22,361 nt of DNA, taken from positions 1-22,361 of IMG/VR virus record IMGVR_UViG_3300031565_000417. The stretch is one strand, 5' to 3'. Positions 11,107 to 22,361 of this stretch are shown here, piece after piece (within the stretch, counting starts at the first letter, position 1; the number at the start of each line of letters is the position of its first letter). The DNA comes from a virus. Below the pieces are notes generated by a model. The model saw nothing but the letters and a program-made list of their open reading frames with translations. It ran no database searches and was not told where the DNA came from. Both the position numbers and the translations under genes were made by a program.

Positions 11107-11547
11107 ATGGATACTATATTAGTTATGGAATTAAAATTTGATGCGGCACATAGGCTATTAGACCATGATGGTCTTTGTGTCAATCTTCATGGCCATACGT
11201 GGAAAGTTCGATTTACAGTTAGTGGACCAGTGGGGGATACTGGAATGGTAGTGGATTTCAAGGTTTTGAAATCACTATTTACTAAAACTATTTCTAATTT
11301 TGACCATAGTGTTTTATTGAATCCTTCTGATCCACTATTTGATATGATTGGTAAATTTGGACTTAGAAGAATTGCCTTAACATCAGGAAACCCTACATGT
11401 GAGAATCTTGCCTATATGATTTTTAGTCAGGTAGGGGCGGACTTACAGTATTATTCCCTTACCATCCGGAATAAGATAAAACTAGTGTCTGTTCAGGTTT
11501 GGGAATCTGATATTGCTAGTGCTATAGTGGTAGATAATAATGAGTAA
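11107..11547 (+). CDS. queD: QueD, 6-carboxytetrahydropterin synthase
   Basis: Converts 7,8-dihydroneopterin triphosphate to 6-carboxy-tetrahydropterin, the second step of preQ0/queuosine synthesis. Zinc ligands His15 (FDAAHRL), His28 and His30 (LHGH) are present, as is Cys24 (the catalytic Cys four residues before the HGH), Asp66-His67 (FDHSVLL) and a Glu near the C-terminus (VWES). The length of 146 fits the family (about 120-150). The ribosome-binding site is AGGGGG. The queE start overlaps its end by 8 bp, so the two enzymes are made together. The first enzyme, GTP cyclohydrolase (FolE), is absent from the window and could come from the host or elsewhere in the genome. Confidence 0.93.
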   Translation: MDTILVMELKFDAAHRLLDHDGLCVNLHGHTWKVRFTVSGPVGDTGMVVDFKVLKSLFTKTISNFDHSVLLNPSDPLFDMIGKFGLRRIALTSGNPTCENLAYMIFSQVGADLQYYSLTIRNKIKLVSVQVWESDIASAIVVDNNE

Positions 11548-12181
11548 ACATTTAATTGTATCAGAAATGTTTAAGGGGATTCAGGGAGAAGGGTTTCATG
11601 CCGGTAGACAGGCAACATTTGTGCGATTTTCTGGATGTAACTTGAGGTGTGAGTTTTGCGATACTGTTTGGGCACAGACCGCCGCAAGTGGTGGGGGATA
11701 TCAACCTAGAGAGTTGGCAGATAAACTTTTAGAATCTATTTTATTTTCAGATTTTATGATATTCACTGGTGGTGAGCCACTTTTACAAGATCATGAAAGT
11801 CTTACTGAATTAATTAGATTGTTAAAGGTTGGAAAGGTGAAGGAAGTTGCTGTGGAAACAAATGGTACCGTCCTAATGAATAAGGATAGGCTTGGGCTGG
11901 ATTGGGTGACAATTTCCCCTAAAACAAAATCATTTTTTACAGATGGGGATGAATTAAAATTGGTAATAGATAACTGGGATGTAGAAGAATTTAATTTAAA
12001 GTACTATGAAAATATGGGGTTTAAGTACTATTATTTACAGCCAGCACTTGCCCAGGAATACCAAAATACCGCCCCATTGTGGGATATTAGAAGTGCTTTT
12101 GCTGTGGTATTTGAGTTACTTAGAAAGAATCCAAAGTGGCGTTTATCCTGTCAGATTCATAAAATTTTGGGGCAAGTATGA
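11540..12181 (+). CDS. queE: QueE, 7-carboxy-7-deazaguanine synthase (radical SAM)
   Basis: Radical-SAM enzyme that turns the QueD product into 7-carboxy-7-deazaguanine (CDG). The N-terminal substrate loop motif FKGIQGEGFHAGR (11-23) and the [4Fe-4S] motif Cys33-x3-Cys37-x2-Cys40 are intact, followed by FTGGEPLLQ, the SAM-binding GGEP segment. An ETNGT segment and a near-C-terminal QPA also match the family. The length of 213 is usual. It overlaps queD and, by ATGA, the reductase gene. QueC (CDG to preQ0) is not seen here. In phages these genes serve DNA guanine modification or supplement tRNA queuosine. Confidence 0.94.
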   Translation: MSKHLIVSEMFKGIQGEGFHAGRQATFVRFSGCNLRCEFCDTVWAQTAASGGGYQPRELADKLLESILFSDFMIFTGGEPLLQDHESLTELIRLLKVGKVKEVAVETNGTVLMNKDRLGLDWVTISPKTKSFFTDGDELKLVIDNWDVEEFNLKYYENMGFKYYYLQPALAQEYQNTAPLWDIRSAFAVVFELLRKNPKWRLSCQIHKILGQV

Positions 12182-13902: not shown

Positions 13903-13978
13903 GGAGAAGAGATGTTGCTGGTAACAGCTGGGCGTTGGAAGCCCGGAATTGTGGGTTCAACTCCCACCTTCTCCACCA
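13903..13978 (+). tRNA. tRNA-Pro (anticodon TGG)
   Basis: Acceptor GGAGAAG/CTTCTCC, T arm GTGGG-TTCAACT-CCCAC, anticodon stem TGGGC/GCCCG with loop GTTGGAA (anticodon 13936-13938), discriminator A and an encoded CCA. It is the only one of the six with a genomic CCA. The D arm is weak (three clear pairs), with A8 and T14 in place of T8 and A14, and position 32 is G. It reads CCA-type Pro codons, favoured in AT-rich genes. The acceptor starts with G1-C72, unlike the C1-G72 usual for bacterial Pro tRNA, so the charging identity is less certain than the anticodon. Confidence 0.8.
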
Positions 13979-14001
13979 TTAATTTTTAGGGGAAAAATAA
14001 A

Positions 14002-14247
14002 ATGATTATTAAGGAAGGTTTAAAATTAAAAATGACAGTAAAATCCACTTCCAGCTTTGAAATACTTTCTTTTACTGGGGATAAAATAATTAAATCACTT
14101 TATATCCCAAAGAAGCCACTTTTAGTGAGTGAAATAATACAACTTTTTCATGGTGCTATAATTGGTTTAGTAAAATTAGAAGAAGAAGAATTGAATAATG
14201 CTATAGAGCGTATTAAAGAACTTAAACAAATGGAGACGGTAATTTAA
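14002..14247 (+). CDS. Small hypothetical protein within tRNA cluster (81 aa)
   Basis: Not recognised. ATG follows AGGGG. The N-terminal half looks like beta strands (LKLKMTVKSTSSFEILSFTG), the C-terminal half helical and charged (VKLEEEELNNAIERIKELK). It ends 7 bp before the second tRNA and is transcribed with the tRNAs from promoter P3. Its codons resemble those of other phage genes, so it is probably real and not a by-product of tRNA sequence. Confidence 0.65.
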   Translation: MIIKEGLKLKMTVKSTSSFEILSFTGDKIIKSLYIPKKPLLVSEIIQLFHGAIIGLVKLEEEELNNAIERIKELKQMETVI

Positions 14248-14254
14248 AATGTAT

Positions 14255-14331
14255 GGAGTGGTAGCTCAATTAATAAGAAGAGCCCCCAAAAGTTTTTTGG
14301 GGAGATGCCAGTTCAAATCTGGCTCACTCCA
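14255..14331 (+). tRNA. tRNA-like, anticodon GTT (Asn), aberrant
   Basis: Good acceptor (GGAGTGG/TCACTCC), D stem GCTC/GAGC, T arm GCCAG-TTCAAAT-CTGGC and discriminator A. The anticodon stem is CCCAA/TTGGG with loop AAGTTTT, giving anticodon GTT (14292-14294). Two near-universal features are missing: position 33 is A rather than T, and the D loop has AA where G18-G19 belong (the His tRNA next door has GG in an otherwise identical AATTxxTAAGAA loop). It may be a decayed copy, or a tRNA with a special use. No encoded CCA. Confidence 0.6.
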
Positions 14332-14344
14332 TTTTTCTTTATTT

Positions 14345-14417
14345 GGGGCGGTAGTTCAATTGGTAAGAATTCCTGACTGTGGATCAGGAGACGGTGGTTC
14401 GATTCCACCCTGTCCCT
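14345..14417 (+). tRNA. tRNA-His (anticodon GTG)
   Basis: Acceptor GGGGCGG/CTGTCCC with two G-T wobbles, D arm GTTC/GAAT with GG in the loop, anticodon stem CCTGA/TCAGG with loop CTGTGGA (anticodon 14379-14381), T arm GGTGG-TTCGATT-CCACC. The base before the acceptor is T and the discriminator is T, so the G-1:C73 pair that normally marks tRNA-His is not encoded. It has the U33-G34-U35 sequence recognised by queuosine-inserting enzymes. No encoded CCA. Confidence 0.88.
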
Positions 14418-14421
14418 TCTT

Positions 14422-14492
14422 AACCCCCTCGTTCAATGGTAGGACACCGGGCTTTGATCCCGGCAATCTTGGTTCGAATCCAAGGAGGGTTG
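14422..14492 (+). tRNA. tRNA-Gln (anticodon TTG)
   Basis: Acceptor AACCCCC/GAGGGTT with one C-A mismatch, D arm GTTC/GGAC with GG, anticodon stem CCGGG/CCCGG and loop CTTTGAT (anticodon 14454-14456), T arm CTTGG-TTCGAAT-CCAAG. Discriminator G fits Gln identity. Only 4 nt separate it from the His tRNA; they must be processed from one transcript. CCA is not encoded. Confidence 0.88.
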
Positions 14493-14495
14493 TTT

Positions 14496-14571
14496 GCCAT
14501 GGTAGCCCAAATAAGGTAGAGGCAGTAGGCTTAGAACCTATGTGTTGGAAGTTCGAATCTTCTCCATGGCA
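14496..14571 (+). tRNA. tRNA-Leu (anticodon TAG), short variable loop
   Basis: Acceptor GCCATGG/CCATGGC, anticodon stem GTAGG/CCTAT with loop CTTAGAA (anticodon 14532-14534, reading CTA), T arm GGAAG-TTCGAAT-CTTCT, discriminator A. The variable region is 5 nt (GTGTT), whereas bacterial Leu tRNAs have a long variable arm. D stem GCC/GGC with a C13-A22 mismatch, the same as in the next tRNA. The anticodon does not read a stop codon. No encoded CCA. Confidence 0.8.
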
Positions 14572-14575
14572 TTAT

Positions 14576-14649
14576 GCCCCAGTAGGCCAATTGGAAGAGC
14601 CAGTGGACTTAAAATTCACCAAGTGTCGGTTCAAATCCGACCTGGGGCA
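14576..14649 (+). tRNA. tRNA-Leu (anticodon TAA), short variable loop
   Basis: Acceptor GCCCCAG/CTGGGGC, D stem GGC/GCC, anticodon stem GTGGA/TTCAC and loop CTTAAAA (anticodon 14610-14612, reading TTA, a very common codon here), T arm GTCGG-TTCAAAT-CCGAC, discriminator A. The variable loop is 5 nt (CAAGT), again unlike standard Leu tRNAs. Shares its D-arm layout with the tRNA before it, suggesting duplication. No encoded CCA; it is followed by a run of T. Confidence 0.82.
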
Positions 14650-14673
14650 TTTTTTGGATCAAAATGGTGGGAT

Positions 14674-15573
14674 ATGCTAATTGATGATATTTTTGATGGG
14701 GAATGGAAATCAAATCAGGAATACTGCATTAGATGCCCATATTGTGGTGATCATCCTACCCATAATCACTGTTATGTTAACGCTGAGGTGGGGTTTTTTA
14801 TTTGCCATTTTTGTGGGAAAAAAGGTACTATTAGGCAGTTAGCATTAGATTATGGAAATGGGGATGAGATAGAAAGCGGGCCTGGATTAGTTGAGAAAGA
14901 GCGGCATACGGAAACAGACTTTTTACAGTTTAGAAAGGTTACTGGTATACATGATCAACTTGACAGGCAGGCTTTAAAATACCTTAAAAGTAGAGGATTT
15001 ACTAAAGAATTAATAAGGTTCTATAATATTAAATTTGCATCTTTTGGTAGGTACTATGGGAGGGTTTTAGTACCTATTTTAGAGGATGGTAGGATTGTTT
15101 GTTTTGTGGCCAGATCCTTTCTAGAAGGCGTGAAACCAAAATATTTATTTCCTCACCATGGGGAAACTATAAATACAACCAGTGAATGTATGTTTGGGTG
15201 GGATGCTGTAAGGAAGAATAACCCACCTTATGTTGTGATTGTAGAAGGGATTTTTGATGCAATTTTAGGTTCTGTCAAAGATGGTGGTGCCTTTATTGCT
15301 ATTAATGGGAAACAGCTGCATAATGGGCAGCTTTTTAAACTTTTAAAATTGGATACGTGTTTTTACATAATGTTGGATGGGGATGCCCTGGATGGGGCTA
15401 TGAGGATAGCTAGGACATTAAAAGGTTTTGGGCATATTCCTAAATTGTGTAGATTATCAGGTGAGGAAGATCCTGCTAGTATTACAAAGGAGAGGATGAA
15501 AGAAGTGCTTAATGAGGCTATGTTCTTTACAACATCAGGGGAGGTTAAGTTACTATTAAGGGAAATGTTGTAA
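14674..15573 (+). CDS. dnaG: DnaG-type primase (zinc-binding and Toprim domains)
   Basis: Makes RNA primers for lagging-strand synthesis. The zinc-binding domain is residues 15-50: Cys21-x2-Cys24 (CPYC) and Cys44-x2-Cys47 (CHFC), with Cys18, His28-32 and Cys33 nearby. The Toprim domain has Glu191 (VIVEGIFDA) and Asp235/Asp237 (LDGDALDGA), the metal-binding acidic residues. With 299 residues it has no fused helicase domain (contrast T7 gp4); the replicative helicase must lie elsewhere. The ATG at 14674 is the first plausible start after the last tRNA; upstream frame is tRNA sequence. The GGTGG before it is closer than ideal (about 3 nt), so expression may be low. The next gene overlaps its stop (TAATG). 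Confidence 0.9.
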   Translation: MLIDDIFDGEWKSNQEYCIRCPYCGDHPTHNHCYVNAEVGFFICHFCGKKGTIRQLALDYGNGDEIESGPGLVEKERHTETDFLQFRKVTGIHDQLDRQALKYLKSRGFTKELIRFYNIKFASFGRYYGRVLVPILEDGRIVCFVARSFLEGVKPKYLFPHHGETINTTSECMFGWDAVRKNNPPYVVIVEGIFDAILGSVKDGGAFIAINGKQLHNGQLFKLLKLDTCFYIMLDGDALDGAMRIARTLKGFGHIPKLCRLSGEEDPASITKERMKEVLNEAMFFTTSGEVKLLLREML

Positions 15574-17083: not shown

Positions 17084-19051
17084 GTGTTGGATAACAGTAG
17101 GATAATTGAAAATATCTATCATTCTGGGCTTTCTATTGATGCCCTTGACTCAGGTTTAAATGGAATATACAAAGAAGGGTATCCATTTGTATCTATTCAA
17201 CAGTTTTTAGATGATGATTATTACTTTGGTAAGATTGCCAAAGATTTGTATCCAGAAAATCGTCCTGATTTAGAAGATATTTTTGATCCAGAAAAGAGTT
17301 ATATTGAAATAATATTGGGTGGTGCTATTGGTTATGGGAAAACTTTTGTAACCACTATTGGATTATGTTACATGATTGGCCAATTATCTGTATATATTGA
17401 TCCACATAGATGGCTAGGGGCTTCTCCAACCTCTCCTTTAGTATTCATCAATATGAGTGTAAGTGGGAAGAAGGCAAAGGAAGTAATTTTTACTAGGGTT
17501 AAAACTATGTTGGATTCTTCCCCATACTTTCAGGAGAAATTCTGTAGAAATAAACGGTTAATTGATACTATGGAATGGAATGTTGATCCAAATGATAAAG
17601 TAAAAAGAAGTGGTCAACAGATTATATTTAAGCCGGGTACGGGGGAATCTTTAAGTGCTTTAGGTGATGATATTTATGGTGGGGCTTGTGATGAGTTGAA
17701 CTTTTTTAGGATTGTGGAAAAATCTAAACGGGCATTTGGTGATAGATTTGACCCAGCCCAGAAACTATATGATACTATTTCTAGAAGGATGAAATCCAGG
17801 TTTTTAAGTGGTGGGATACAATTAGGTAAGTTATTTCTTGTTTCATCTGCACAGGTACCTGAGGATTTTATTGAGCGTAGGATTTTAGAGGCAGAAAAAG
17901 ATGGTAGTTTAGGGAATACAGTAAAGTATATAAAAAAGAGCCAGTGGGAAGGTAAAAGAGGAGTTACAGTTGCTGGTAGGCCAGTATTTAGTGAACAAAC
18001 ATTCCGGGTGGAGGTTGGGGATGCAAATAGGAAATCGAGGTTACTTGATAGAGTAGATTTGAAAACAAAAGAAGTTATATCTGTTATTGATTCAGAAGCT
18101 AGGATTAATGGTAAAGTGATTGAACCACCAATTGATTTTTGGGATGATTTTTATAGAGATTTAGATGGTTCAATACGGGATTTTGGTGGGGAGGTGACTA
18201 GGGCTATTAATCCATTTTTTACAGATATAGAAGTAATATATACTGCTGCTGAATCAGGGACTGACCAAGGGCTTATACACCCATGGGCGGCTGAGGAAAC
18301 GACTCTTGAGGATGGTATGCGGTTACTGATAAATAAAGTTTTCAAGTACAATGAGAAAAAAAAGAGATGGAAACCAATTCGGCACCCAAATAAGGCAAGA
18401 TATTGGCATATAGATATTTCTTTAAGTGGTGACGCCTTAGGGTTAAGTATTGTGCATACATGCGGTTGGAGGCAGGTATGTCCACAGCCCGGAGTATATG
18501 AGGATAGGCCCATTATAGAAACAGATTTAATGTTGAGGGTAGTTCCTCCATATGGTGGTGAGATTAAACTTGGTAATGTTAGGTCCATTTTGTACCAACT
18601 TCAGAACCATGGGATGTATCTTGCAGTAGGCTCCTTAGATCTTAAAATGATGTCTTCTGATTTTATGCAGATTGTTAGAACTAAAGGTCTTACTTGTGGG
18701 CATCTTAGCGTGGATACAGATTTTACTCCTTACCGAGTACTTAAAGATGTATTTTATGATGGTAGAATGGTTATGTACTCTTATGAGCCAGTAATTACTG
18801 AACTTGTGCGGCTAGAGAAAAGGTTGGAAAAGGTTGATCATCCGGCAGACGGCAGTAAGGATGTTTCCGACTCTTTAGCTGGGGCGGTGTATAATTTATT
18901 TACAAATGAATTAAGAGTTTCACCAAGGGAGCTTGATGCTAGGTTACCATTAAATAGTACTGTGAAGGAAAAAGATACCTTAGACAGGAGGATGAAGGAT
19001 GAGGCGGAAAAATTCCGCACTCTAGTGAGGGCAGGGAAGGTGATAAAATGA
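17084..19051 (+). CDS. terL: Terminase large subunit (packaging ATPase-nuclease)
   Basis: Motor that drives DNA into the prohead and cuts the concatemer. ATPase domain: Walker A GAIGYGKT (80-87), Walker B-like GGACDELNFF with Asp203-Glu204, and the coupling segment LVSSAQ (252-257). Nuclease domain of RNase H fold: HIDISLSGDALG (442-453, Asp444 metal ligand), VGSLDL (515-520) and the final DGSKDVSDSLAG (589-600) acidic pair. The 655-residue length is close to T4 gp17 (610). The start is GTG at 17084, about 10 nt after GGGAG; a TTG at the next codon is also possible. The gene overlaps the 57-residue ORF by ATGA. This type of TerL fits headful or T4-like packaging, but the sequence does not settle the end type. 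Confidence 0.95.
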   Translation: MLDNSRIIENIYHSGLSIDALDSGLNGIYKEGYPFVSIQQFLDDDYYFGKIAKDLYPENRPDLEDIFDPEKSYIEIILGGAIGYGKTFVTTIGLCYMIGQLSVYIDPHRWLGASPTSPLVFINMSVSGKKAKEVIFTRVKTMLDSSPYFQEKFCRNKRLIDTMEWNVDPNDKVKRSGQQIIFKPGTGESLSALGDDIYGGACDELNFFRIVEKSKRAFGDRFDPAQKLYDTISRRMKSRFLSGGIQLGKLFLVSSAQVPEDFIERRILEAEKDGSLGNTVKYIKKSQWEGKRGVTVAGRPVFSEQTFRVEVGDANRKSRLLDRVDLKTKEVISVIDSEARINGKVIEPPIDFWDDFYRDLDGSIRDFGGEVTRAINPFFTDIEVIYTAAESGTDQGLIHPWAAEETTLEDGMRLLINKVFKYNEKKKRWKPIRHPNKARYWHIDISLSGDALGLSIVHTCGWRQVCPQPGVYEDRPIIETDLMLRVVPPYGGEIKLGNVRSILYQLQNHGMYLAVGSLDLKMMSSDFMQIVRTKGLTCGHLSVDTDFTPYRVLKDVFYDGRMVMYSYEPVITELVRLEKRLEKVDHPADGSKDVSDSLAGAVYNLFTNELRVSPRELDARLPLNSTVKEKDTLDRRMKDEAEKFRTLVRAGKVIK

Positions 19052-19221
19052 AGAATATTGATAGATTTTTGAGTAAGTTATTTGGGTTGATGCCAAAGGG
19101 GAAAACCGAATTAGTTATTGAAACTACAACAAAAGATCCAGAAAATGAGAATGAAGTAATTATGTTTGACTATTTGCAGAAAAGTGCTGATAGTGGAAAA
19201 CTTGGGATACCGGTAAAGTGA
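19048..19221 (+). CDS. Small hypothetical protein between TerL and portal (57 aa)
   Basis: Starts MKNIDRFLSKLFGLMPKGK and ends GKLGIPVK. Its ATG overlaps the TerL stop (ATGA) and is preceded by GGGAAGG at a good distance, so it is very likely translated. An amphipathic N-terminal helix with bulky hydrophobics (FLSKLFGLM) is followed by an acidic middle (KDPENENE). Function unknown. Location suggests a terminase or portal accessory, and it fills an otherwise unexplained 186-bp gap between two conserved genes. Confidence 0.65.
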   Translation: MKNIDRFLSKLFGLMPKGKTELVIETTTKDPENENEVIMFDYLQKSADSGKLGIPVK

Positions 19222-19237
19222 TGGAGTTATAAAACTA

Positions 19238-20800
19238 ATGAAACAAGATAAGGAGAGAAATGCGGGATTTGTGGCCTTAGTGCGTGATACCATGTTTAAG
19301 CCAAAATCAGGTGGGCAATCTATAGGGAAGAAAACAACGCAGTTTATTCCAAGGGGGGATGGTGTTAGCGCATATTATGCACTAACTAAATGGTATCAAA
19401 ATGCTGTAAATCCAAATTTTTCCAGACTAGACCAGTATAAGGTTTTTGATTTTTTGGATAGGAATTTAGCGGAAGGATCTACAGCGTTAAATATATATGC
19501 GGATAATATAGTTAGTGGTGCAATTGGTGGGGCGGAGACCTATAAGGTTCTGATTGAAGAAGGTACACCAGATGCTGAGAGGAAGGAAGCATTAATTAAG
19601 GATGCGGAGGATAGAACAGGAATAAAAAAACATGTATGGGAAATTGCTAGAGATTTAACAAAATTTGGGGATGATTTTGAGGAAGTGGTAGTGATACAGA
19701 CTCCTGCTGGAGATTATTTGATAGATAAGTTAAAGAAACTTCCAGAAGGAGAAATTTTCGCAAATGTGGATGAGCGTGGTGTAGTCAAGGATAATGATTA
19801 TCCATATTATCAGAAGGCTCCGGATATGCCAGATGATGCGCTAATTTATTTTGATTGGTGGAGGTTGATTCATTTCAAAATTGGTAGGGGTACTTATGGT
19901 TTTGGTAAATCTCTTTTTTCCAATGCTTCTCAGCGGATAGGTCGGCAATTGCTTTGGATGGATGATTGCTTAGTCATTGGTAGAATTACTAGAGCTTGGA
20001 TGCGGTATGCGTTTGGGGTGGATGTCACTAATCTGCCACCAGAGGAAGTTTGGGAATATCTGGATAAGTTTAAATCTAGGGTTACTAAAAAAGAAGTTGT
20101 AGAGAGGTCAGATGGGAGAATACTCATTGGTGATAATCCGCCAATGGTTGATGAGGATATTTTTTATCCAATTCGTGAAGGATCTAATCAAGATGTTAAA
20201 GTACTTAGTGGTGATGCCAATATAGGAAGTATTGATGATATGAAATATGTACAAACTAAGTTTCTTATGGCGGTTTCTGTTCCTAAGGCTTACGTAGGGT
20301 TAGAGGCGGATACTAGGTCTAGGGCTACACTTACTCAAATTGATGTACAATTTTCCCGTCAGGTAAGAAGACGGCAATACGAATTGGTACCAGGATTGGA
20401 ACGGTTTTATGAGATTGTATTTACCTTAGCTGGGATTGATCCAAATAGTTTTGCATGGTCTATACAGTTTCCTGAGTTAAATACTACTGATGAACTACTA
20501 CAGTGGGAAATGATGAAGCTGAAAGCTGAGGTAGCAAAGACATATGTTATTGATATTGGCTGTCTTAACAATGAATGGATTTATGATAAATTATTAGGAT
20601 TTACCCAGGAGGAAAAAGATCTTTATGCTGAGATATTTGAAGTTGATGATGAGGATGAAGGTCAGTTTTTATTTACTCCGGAGCAGTCAAGGCAGATTAG
20701 GCAAGATCCTGCTGTAAGAACTATTTTACATAATATAAAGGATTTGGTTGCCTATAAGCAAGCTAGGGCGGCTGATGCTAAGGATAAAAAGGAAGTTTAA
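19238..20800 (+). CDS. Portal protein (T4 gp20-like)
   Basis: Forms the dodecameric ring at the prohead vertex through which DNA enters and to which the tail joins. Recognised from the gp20-type pattern: FKIGRGTYGFGKSLFSNASQRIGRQLLWMDDCLVIGRITRAW (about 212-252), where a basic helix precedes a conserved RI.RA segment, LPPEEVWEYLDKFKSR, and KYVQTKFLMAVSVPKAYVGLE (about 335-355) with the later RRRQYELVPGLERFYEIVF helix. The N-terminal part (AEGSTALNIYADNIV) is also typical. Length 520 is close to T4 gp20 (524). ATG after a GGAG site. It lies between TerL and the head morphogenesis protein, the normal order. Confidence 0.9.
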   Translation: MKQDKERNAGFVALVRDTMFKPKSGGQSIGKKTTQFIPRGDGVSAYYALTKWYQNAVNPNFSRLDQYKVFDFLDRNLAEGSTALNIYADNIVSGAIGGAETYKVLIEEGTPDAERKEALIKDAEDRTGIKKHVWEIARDLTKFGDDFEEVVVIQTPAGDYLIDKLKKLPEGEIFANVDERGVVKDNDYPYYQKAPDMPDDALIYFDWWRLIHFKIGRGTYGFGKSLFSNASQRIGRQLLWMDDCLVIGRITRAWMRYAFGVDVTNLPPEEVWEYLDKFKSRVTKKEVVERSDGRILIGDNPPMVDEDIFYPIREGSNQDVKVLSGDANIGSIDDMKYVQTKFLMAVSVPKAYVGLEADTRSRATLTQIDVQFSRQVRRRQYELVPGLERFYEIVFTLAGIDPNSFAWSIQFPELNTTDELLQWEMMKLKAEVAKTYVIDIGCLNNEWIYDKLLGFTQEEKDLYAEIFEVDDEDEGQFLFTPEQSRQIRQDPAVRTILHNIKDLVAYKQARAADAKDKKEV

Positions 20801-20815
20801 AAGGGATTATTAATA

Positions 20816-22361
20816 GTGTTATTGGATATTCTTTTACATGCTATTCCGGTACTGGAGGAAGTTGATAAAAGTTATATAGGGAAATTTAATACTCAAGATC
20901 CAATTGCTCAATCACAAACTAATTTATTTATGTCCATGGGGCTAGAAAATCCAGAATTGATGCAGGCTGGGTTTAAACAATATACTCAAGTTATGGGGAA
21001 TTTTGAGAATGGTATGATTGATATTGTATCCAAGTTTCAAGCTGGAAATATTTCATGGACAAAGGCAGTTCAGGATTTTAAACTACTGTCTGGGGAGAAT
21101 TATAAAAAGTTATTTACTGCCGGAGCAAGGGCTGTAGGGAATGAATTTTATGATAAATTGGCATTAAATAGGAAAGATGTGTCCTTTTTGAATAAAGCAA
21201 GAAGAACTGAGATGCGGTTTTTTAAAGGGTTTTTAAACGATATAAAAGATCCAAAGCATATGCCTTCCAGTAAGATTCCTAGAGATCCAACTACTGGTAA
21301 GAAGTTACCTGGATACCGGGTACAAAAATTTGATTATTTAGACAGATCTAAATTTTATTCTGCTAGTGGGAAGGCTCAGTTTTTTAATGGAATGGTGGCT
21401 GGAGCTGGTTCTGAAATGGATATATTTTGGAGATTAGGGGTTCCACAAACAGAACATTGTGATGTTTGCCCACAATATGCTAGGGTGAGATGGACTTGGC
21501 AAACGATTCCCACAGTGCCTAGATCTGGGGATACTCCATGCTTGTGGAGATGTTATTGCTATTTAGAATTTAAGCCAAAAACTGGTAAAATGCGGGGCGG
21601 TGATCCTGATAAGTGGATTAGCCGAGGGATTCAGGCTGGGCAATTACCACCAACAGATACCACTCTTACTCCAGCAGGGAGGATTTTAGATCCTAATACC
21701 AGGCTTCCGGCAATAGATGTTTCAGAGTCATTAGTTACAGTACATGATGGTTTAAGGGCTGGGTTGAACAAGGCTAGGCAAATGTTAGAGCTACCACTTA
21801 GTAAGTTATCAATGAAGGAGTGGATAAAAACTAGGATTCATCTGAATGATGAATTGATTTTACTACAGGAGCAGTTTCCACAGTATAGATTTTTACCCAA
21901 GTTTGCAGTGAAAGATTTAGTGAGTACAGTAAAAAGTGCTGCTAAGATTGGTGGGAAATTAACTCCAATTAACAAGTTACTTGCTGCTGATGAGGTTGTA
22001 TTTGTTAGAGGTATTTCTTCTGATGTTGGAAGGGTTCAAGTGGTTAATGGAGAAATGGTTCTTGTAAGGCCTTCTGGTGAGATAGTACGGTTGGATGATA
22101 GTTCTGATCTAGCATTTTTACTAAAACGTACAGTGGTAGAGCCAAGTTTCTCAGTTTCTGGTACTGGGGAGAAATTATATTTTCATGACCATGTATCTTC
22201 TGCTGAGCTTGATATCATACGTGGGTGGAGTAAGACTAACTATTCATCAATTAGGGCATATTTGTCTGGTAGGATGCCTATTGAGACAATTGAACGCTTC
22301 AAGAAGCAAGGTTTTGATGTAGTTGCTGAATCGGAAAGGTTCAAGGCATTATTTAATAAGT
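20816..22361 (+). CDS. Phage head morphogenesis protein (Mu F/SPP1 gp7-like), 3' partial
   Basis: Minor head protein needed for capsid assembly, in its usual place after the portal gene. The start is GTG at 20816 after AAAGGG; the frame is open to the window end, so at least 515 residues. The family core is at about 80-255: an N-terminal helical region, then RTEMRFFKGF and a cysteine-rich end with Cys215-x2-Cys218 (HCDVCPQYA), PRSGDTPC (Cys242) and CYCYLEF (Cys246, Cys248), matching the C..C...P.G..C...CRC pattern typical of these proteins. The region after about 270 is extra; from about residue 462 (AELDIIRGWSKTNYSSIRAYLSG) it resembles the opening helix and Y..IN..LRG segment of ADP-ribosyltransferase domains. 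The end of that domain lies outside the window, so the call is tentative. Confidence 0.85.
   Translation, partial: MLLDILLHAIPVLEEVDKSYIGKFNTQDPIAQSQTNLFMSMGLENPELMQAGFKQYTQVMGNFENGMIDIVSKFQAGNISWTKAVQDFKLLSGENYKKLFTAGARAVGNEFYDKLALNRKDVSFLNKARRTEMRFFKGFLNDIKDPKHMPSSKIPRDPTTGKKLPGYRVQKFDYLDRSKFYSASGKAQFFNGMVAGAGSEMDIFWRLGVPQTEHCDVCPQYARVRWTWQTIPTVPRSGDTPCLWRCYCYLEFKPKTGKMRGGDPDKWISRGIQAGQLPPTDTTLTPAGRILDPNTRLPAIDVSESLVTVHDGLRAGLNKARQMLELPLSKLSMKEWIKTRIHLNDELILLQEQFPQYRFLPKFAVKDLVSTVKSAAKIGGKLTPINKLLAADEVVFVRGISSDVGRVQVVNGEMVLVRPSGEIVRLDDSSDLAFLLKRTVVEPSFSVSGTGEKLYFHDHVSSAELDIIRGWSKTNYSSIRAYLSGRMPIETIERFKKQGFDVVAESERFKALFNK

What the first reader, a model, noticed from the sequence alone, without database searches (positions are those of the whole stretch)
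22130..22361. Head morphogenesis protein apparently fused to an ADP-ribosyltransferase-like domain
After the Cys-rich Mu F-like core the protein continues past 500 residues. From about residue 462 the pattern (acidic helix start, Trp-Ser, N-Y-SS-I-R-A-Y-L-S-G) resembles the N-terminal helix region of ART domains that occur on some phage head proteins. Such a domain could be delivered with DNA to modify host targets at the start of infection.
Basis: inference. Interest (0 to 1): 0.5.

Follow-up and report, generated by a model that had tools for sequence, protein, structure and literature searches.

The report
Phage head protein carrying ADP-ribosyltransferase tail
A structural protein of an uncultured phage's head ends in what looks like an intact enzyme for tagging proteins with ADP-ribose, probably injected with the DNA to reprogram the host; this is a known kind of phage fusion, here in a lineage that swaps this tail for many other enzymes.

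Summary
The window stops inside the gene, but contig L002 (99.96% identical over 5,010 bases) continues it: 628 residues, stop 113 codons past the window edge, with Arg (YRG, R527), Ser (S-W-T, S557) and E-x-E (E599, E601) in order. A second contig, L011, carries the same tail (38% identity) on a Pfam-positive Mu F protein whose core shows no significant similarity to this one. A three-sequence AlphaFold model matches ADP-ribosyltransferases (Foldseek 1e-5; VIA Z 10.2). Weak points: PF03496 is below cut-off (E 0.03), that model's alignment held one known ART, and the two-sequence model found none by Foldseek. In 12 of 12 other records with this core, similarity ends at residues 437-460; their tails include other ART-like domains, HEAGH peptidase-like domains, a zeta-toxin kinase and a topoisomerase IB. 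The next gene is shared across different tails, so a tail-specific immunity gene is unlikely. Integrase or resolvase: 0 of 14 records, many partial. MuF-ART fusions are already in print: a new member of a known kind.

The parts
20816..22361 (+). MuF-like head protein gene with C-terminal ART tail, 5' 515 codons; the gene continues past the window (113 more codons in L002)
20816..22126 (+). MuF-like core, residues 1-437, shared with 12 other records
21455..21559 (+). Conserved His-Cys cluster (H214 C215 C218 C242 C246 C248), invariant in 8 of 8 aligned cores
22127..22177 (+). Linker between core and tail, residues 438-454
22178..22361 (+). N-terminal helical part of the ART tail, residues 455-515; the catalytic R/S/E-x-E half lies outside the window, in L002 5037-5276
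19238..20800 (+). T4-like portal protein gene directly upstream
   Evidence: PF07230, 4.7e-35
17084..19051 (+). Large terminase gene
   Evidence: phrog_2, 5.1e-4; annotated terminases, about 33% identity

Best explanation
The gene encodes a MuF-like protein of the portal region of the phage head whose core (1-437) is joined by a short linker to a C-terminal ADP-ribosyltransferase of the R-S-E type (455-628). Most likely the core builds a few copies into the head near the portal, the tail leaves with the DNA at infection, and in the cytoplasm it uses NAD+ to put ADP-ribose on host protein (arginine is the likely acceptor, from E-x-E), as T4 Alt does, to turn the host to phage use. Shown here: the fusion, the complete ORF in a near-identical contig, the catalytic motifs in order, the swapping of tails on one core and of this tail between two cores. 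Inferred: incorporation in the head, ejection, enzyme activity, acceptor residue, target.
For: Continuation and motifs. Tail homologous to that of L011, 57 of 151 positions identical, single-comparison E 7e-30; R, G, S-W and E-x-E-V-I are among the identical positions. L011's upstream part is a Pfam Mu F protein above cut-off (PF04233 2.6e-9) and its tail matches phrog_832, RNA polymerase ADP-ribosylase, at 9.2e-6. PF03496 covers nearly the whole L002 tail, though below cut-off (E 0.03). Only PDB sequence matching the two-sequence profile at E up to 10 is the ART Certhrax, E 0.47. Three-sequence AlphaFold model, pLDDT 70.9, pTM 0.61: Foldseek against PDB, 68 matches at E up to 0.001, best Certhrax 1.0e-5 and 50 of 50 listed rows ARTs by title; VIA best HopU1 Z 10.2, rmsd 2.7, 99 residues; viral library best a 'Minor capsid protein' 2.1e-7, then named phage ARTs and head morphogenesis proteins. 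Gene order terminase, portal, MuF.
Against: PF03496 is under its gathering score for L002 (14.1 against 23.4 bits); a first-look search of the L002 record found no PF03496 match and that of L011 gave 17.2 bits, under cut-off; L011's tail alone gave no PF03496 match at E up to 1 by hmmscan; NCBIfam gave nothing. Single-sequence phmmer against PDB gave no ART. The two-sequence model was poor (pLDDT 56.6), with no Foldseek match at E up to 0.001 and only Z up to 3.2. The better model's alignment included a known ART (L007), so it is partly led; its Foldseek superpositions are loose (TM 0.30-0.44, rmsd about 7-9). hhalign of the two-sequence profile to that ART scored 16.9 while at least 5 of 200 shuffles scored 19.1-22.3. 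Residue 513 onward of the window's own copy is not seen; it is taken from L002. No data on virion content or activity.
Confidence: 0.65

Rival explanations
1. It is a MuF polymorphic toxin in the strict sense: a prophage-borne weapon against competitors or a lysogeny switch, with a cognate immunity gene beside it, like Bxa of a Bacteroides prophage.
For: Bxa is a MuF-ART that ADP-ribosylates arginine and kills bacteria, neutralised by neighbouring BAH and Bsi (PMC11699363, passages). Jamet et al. report MuF toxins in temperate phages, 89.4% of 191 followed by a small ORF (PMC5576092, passages and Discussion). A 100-aa ORF starts 39 bases after the MuF stop in L002.
Against: That small gene or domain has relatives in 10 of 13 other loci, next to unrelated tails, and inside the MuF ORF itself in L004 and L005; in L002, L008, L009 and L023 it is the next ORF although the tails are of three kinds. 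No integrase or resolvase in 14 of 14 records, though none is rated at least 90% complete.
Confidence: 0.15
2. The tail is an ART-fold domain that no longer or never transfers ADP-ribose: an NAD+ glycohydrolase, or a structural or binding domain in the head.
For: The Ser motif is S-W-T or S-W-S rather than S-T-S; fold alone shows no function; some ART-fold toxins are NAD(P) glycohydrolases (title and abstract start of PMC13285283 in a listing).
Against: Arg, Ser and both Glu are kept between two tails only 38% identical, on different cores; E-x-E points to transfer rather than plain hydrolysis (recalled).
Confidence: 0.12
3. The tail is not an ART; motif and model matches are chance or led by the one ART in the alignment.
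For: Below-cut-off profile scores, hhalign within shuffles, poor two-sequence model.
Against: Ordered motif in 186 of 100,000 shuffles and in just the three ART candidates among 683 ORFs; L011 tail against phrog_832 at 9.2e-6; Certhrax the sole PDB profile hit; alpha-beta order of the poor, ART-free model already fits.
Confidence: 0.06

Closest known systems
MuF domains fused to Alt/VIP2 and N4-ART family ARTs in phages (PMC9503650, passages seen)
   Same: ART C-terminal to a MuF head domain, in the terminase-portal gene block; same proposed delivery with DNA.
   Different: Here the core gives no PF04233 match, and the core family gave no match in 50,697 phage records nor in the genome scan.
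Bxa, MuF-ART of a Bacteroides stercoris prophage (PMC11699363, passages seen)
   Same: MuF fused to an ART active on arginine.
   Different: Bxa has neighbouring immunity genes; here the neighbour is shared across different tails.
MuF toxins of temperate phages (PMC5576092, passages and Discussion)
   Same: Constant MuF part, variable C-terminal enzymes, ARTs and metallopeptidases among them.
   Different: Reported only from temperate phages; no integrase or resolvase found here.
T4 Alt (described in passages of PMC5512222)
   Same: Head-carried ART acting at the start of infection is the proposed way of working.
   Different: Alt is a separate protein, not part of a MuF head protein (recalled).
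PHROG 832 and PHROG 16619
   Same: L011's tail matches phrog_832 (9.2e-6); L002's tail matches phrog_16619, minor head protein, at 0.0057.
   Different: Partial matches within profiles of 1,480 and 1,440 positions.

Membership tests
ADP-ribosyltransferase superfamily, R-S-E type | Arg, S-x-[ST], E-x-E in order with fitting spacing | tested here: met
   R527, S557, E599/E601 in L002; same in L011. Outside the window itself.
ADP-ribosyltransferase superfamily, R-S-E type | ART fold | tested here: inconclusive
   Three-sequence model matches ARTs, but its alignment held a known ART; two-sequence model did not match by Foldseek.
ADP-ribosyltransferase superfamily, R-S-E type | Transfer of ADP-ribose from NAD+ | not testable with these tools
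   Needs a bench assay.
Pfam PF03496 ADPrib_exo_Tox (formal family) | Score above the gathering cut-off | tested here: not met
   14.1 bits against 23.4, E 0.03; so it is not filed under PF03496.
Pfam PF04233 Phage_Mu_F (formal family) | Score above the gathering cut-off | tested here: not met
   No PF04233 match for the window protein nor any of 8 cores; hence 'MuF-like'. L011's protein does meet it.
MuF-like head proteins | Gene next to portal in the head block, C-terminal Cys cluster of the core | tested here: met
   Portal PF07230 directly upstream; His-Cys cluster invariant in 8 of 8; profile match to L024, 7e-17.
MuF polymorphic toxins of temperate phages (Jamet et al.) | Constant N-terminal part with exchangeable C-terminal enzyme domains | tested here: met
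   Similarity ends at residues 437-460 in 12 of 12; tail kinds.
MuF polymorphic toxins of temperate phages (Jamet et al.) | Carried by temperate phage or prophage | tested here: inconclusive
   0 of 14 records with PF00589 or PF00239; records partial; no relative found in the genome scan.
MuF polymorphic toxins of temperate phages (Jamet et al.) | Cognate immunity gene directly downstream | tested here: not met
   The next gene is shared across unrelated tails; an immunity gene elsewhere is not excluded.

The most novel reading that the evidence does not exclude
This uncultured, possibly virulent phage lineage uses one MuF-like core, with a small companion domain kept beside or inside it, as a general loading platform for exchangeable injected enzymes: ARTs of several kinds, HEAGH peptidase-like domains, a zeta-toxin kinase, topoisomerase IB. 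It needs no immunity genes, because the enzymes act only in the next host.
Probability: 0.4. Interest if true: 0.55.

Novelty: new member of a known kind. Interest (0 to 1): 0.38.

Why it matters
It adds a deep-branching, uncultured phage lineage to those that arm a head protein with an ART, and shows the tail to be a movable cassette: one core with many tails and one tail on two cores. If the lineage is virulent, MuF effectors are not confined to temperate phages as the 2017 survey (PMC5576092) found, and host takeover rather than competition between lysogens would be their likely use. The small companion domain is a testable candidate for loading or ejection.

Tried and rejected
Close relatives in isolates: the 515-residue query gave no match in 50,697 phage records at E up to 1; the tail gave only E 0.7 in 68 Flavobacterium phage records, inside one very long structural protein with a loosely similar YRG...WVS stretch, and E 0.3 in a plasmid record that proved to be a MurD-like gene, chance; L011's tail gave none at E up to 0.1.

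More relatives of the tail: scans of viral contigs with the tail, the pair alignment and L011's tail returned only the L002 and L011 contigs; scans with L007's ART and L008's tail returned only themselves and L009's contig. Genome scans with the core and then the tail pair gave no relative.

Statistical support by aligning to L007's ART: hhalign 16.9, not above shuffles; set aside as evidence. In the same script hmmsearch ranked L007's ART at E 0.14 behind L036 (0.0038) and L035 (0.0061), both of which had been fetched because they matched the tail.

First structure model: too poor to use; 9 of 30 listed VIA rows are Tpt1, KptA or HopU1 by title, all at Z 3.2 or less, so not counted.

ChaB identity of the downstream small protein: E 0.069 for L002, no ChaB match for the five relatives scanned beside it; not claimed. 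L008/L009 as the same tail as L002: an alignment suggests S-W-S and E-x-E but BLAST of tails did not link them; left open. Neighbourhoods of three isolate phages with related terminases showed no annotated MuF or ART.

Full report
What is there. The ORF at 20816 runs off the window at codon 515. It follows a T4-like portal gene (PF07230, 4.7e-35) and a large terminase gene (phrog_2, 5.1e-4). L002 overlaps window 17352-22361 with 2 mismatches in 5,010 bases and gives the complete protein, 628 residues. Positions: IYRGL 525-529, SSWTSS 556-561, SEKEVIL 598-604. The R-S-E half is thus outside the window and is taken for this phage from a near-identical contig.

Core. Eight cores align over about 437 residues with an invariant His-Cys cluster. 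No member matches PF04233, but the profile matches L024 at 7e-17, and L024 matches PF04233 weakly, 0.029. I call it MuF-like.

Tail. The tail is homologous to that of L011, a protein whose own N-terminal part is a Pfam Mu F domain (2.6e-9) with no significant similarity to this core (hhalign 0.062 over 24 columns). Identity is 57 of 151, with the R-G, S-W and E-x-E-V-I positions kept. L011's tail matches phrog_832, RNA polymerase ADP-ribosylase, at 9.2e-6. PF03496 covers residues 9-169 of the 179 scanned in L002's tail at E 0.03, under cut-off. Aligned with L007's Pfam-positive ART (3.5e-28), 20 columns are invariant, R73, G74, S103, E145 and E147 among them.

Structure. The two-sequence model was poor (pLDDT 56.6) and matched nothing at E up to 0.001. 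Adding L007's ART gave pLDDT 70.9, pTM 0.61. Foldseek then gave 68 PDB matches at E up to 0.001, the 50 listed all ARTs by title, though with loose global superposition. VIA gave HopU1 Z 10.2 over 99 residues at 2.7 A, mostly on the C-terminal half 64-174. In the viral library the best match is a minor capsid protein, followed by named phage ARTs and head morphogenesis proteins among the 32 at E up to 0.001. The known ART in the alignment makes this supporting, not independent, evidence.

Swapping. Against 12 other records with this core, similarity to the L002 protein ends at residues 437-460 in 12 of 12; three of these ORFs (L004, L005, L014) are cut by contig ends and L008 and L009 are near-duplicates. 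Tails by evidence: L013 zeta toxin (6.5e-9, above cut-off) plus a HEAGH stretch; L019 topoisomerase IB (2.4e-17, above cut-off) with a weak PARP match (0.0019, below), and a second ORF with an RNA 2'-phosphotransferase match (3.6e-6, above); L006 weak PARP (0.0017, below), related to L023's tail; L003, L016 and L014 related to each other, with HEAGH seen by eye in L003 and L016; L007 an unassigned tail with a canonical ART gene next door; L004, L005, L008 and L009 unassigned by profile.

Neighbour gene. The 100-residue gene 39 bases after MuF in L002 has relatives in 10 of 13 other loci searched (none in L011, L014, L016), in the MuF ORF itself in L004 and L005, and as the next ORF in L008, L009 and L023. 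It goes with the core, not the tail. In L003, L013 and L016 other small ORFs come first, so immunity genes there are not excluded.

Life style. PF00589 and PF00239 gave 0 of 14 records, the window included; three records are 92.8-98.4 kb, none rated at least 90% complete. Window genes include DNA polymerase A, gp32-like, RecA, 5'-3' exonuclease, PTPS, radical SAM and a DnaG N-terminal match and five tRNAs. This suits a virulent phage but does not prove it.

Known background. MuF-ART fusions and their likely head delivery are described (PMC9503650, PMC5512222; passages); MuF toxins are reported from temperate phages only (PMC5576092; passages and Discussion); Bxa is a tested case (PMC11699363; passages). 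A search for MuF with 'virulent phages' and 'toxin domain' listed two papers, the 2017 survey and a meeting report. So the finding is a confirmed new member of a known kind, with the swapping and the missing tail-specific neighbour as its more interesting sides.

Noticed in passing
window 22234 and 22295: The only two differences from L002 in 5,010 bases both change residues of the ART tail (473 K/N, 494 R/C) and lie within 130 bases of the contig end; variation or contig-end error.
   Followed up: partly
L002 5391-5693; L004 6255-6371; L005 6819-6950; L008 6710-6916: A small domain of unknown function accompanies the core as its own gene or inside the MuF ORF; weak ChaB match in one only.
   Followed up: partly
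L004, L006 downstream ORF, L007, L019: Short repeated linkers of the form GSGN-F-x-H-x-G-x-x-GEVGGSA between domains, and GMKWGxHK stretches (DUF7211) in L019; possible cleavage or loading signals.
   Followed up: no
L003 6380-6574; L006 5572-6303; L013 7086-7361 and 7489-7935; L016 6333-6524: Small Cys-rich proteins with a C-x-AFPxGIP stretch after several MuF genes; L016's matches phrog_33375 at 6.5e-5.
   Followed up: partly
L019 5180-8985: Two adjacent ORFs that together carry topoisomerase IB, PARP-like and RNA 2'-phosphotransferase-like domains: a large polyvalent arrangement.
   Followed up: partly
window 13903-14650: Five tRNA genes (Pro, His, Gln, two Leu); the 143-aa ORF at 14249-14680 overlaps four of them and is probably not a gene.
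   Followed up: partly
window 11107-12181: PTPS and radical SAM genes side by side, QueD- and QueE-like, hinting at a deazaguanine base modification (the names are recalled).
   Followed up: no
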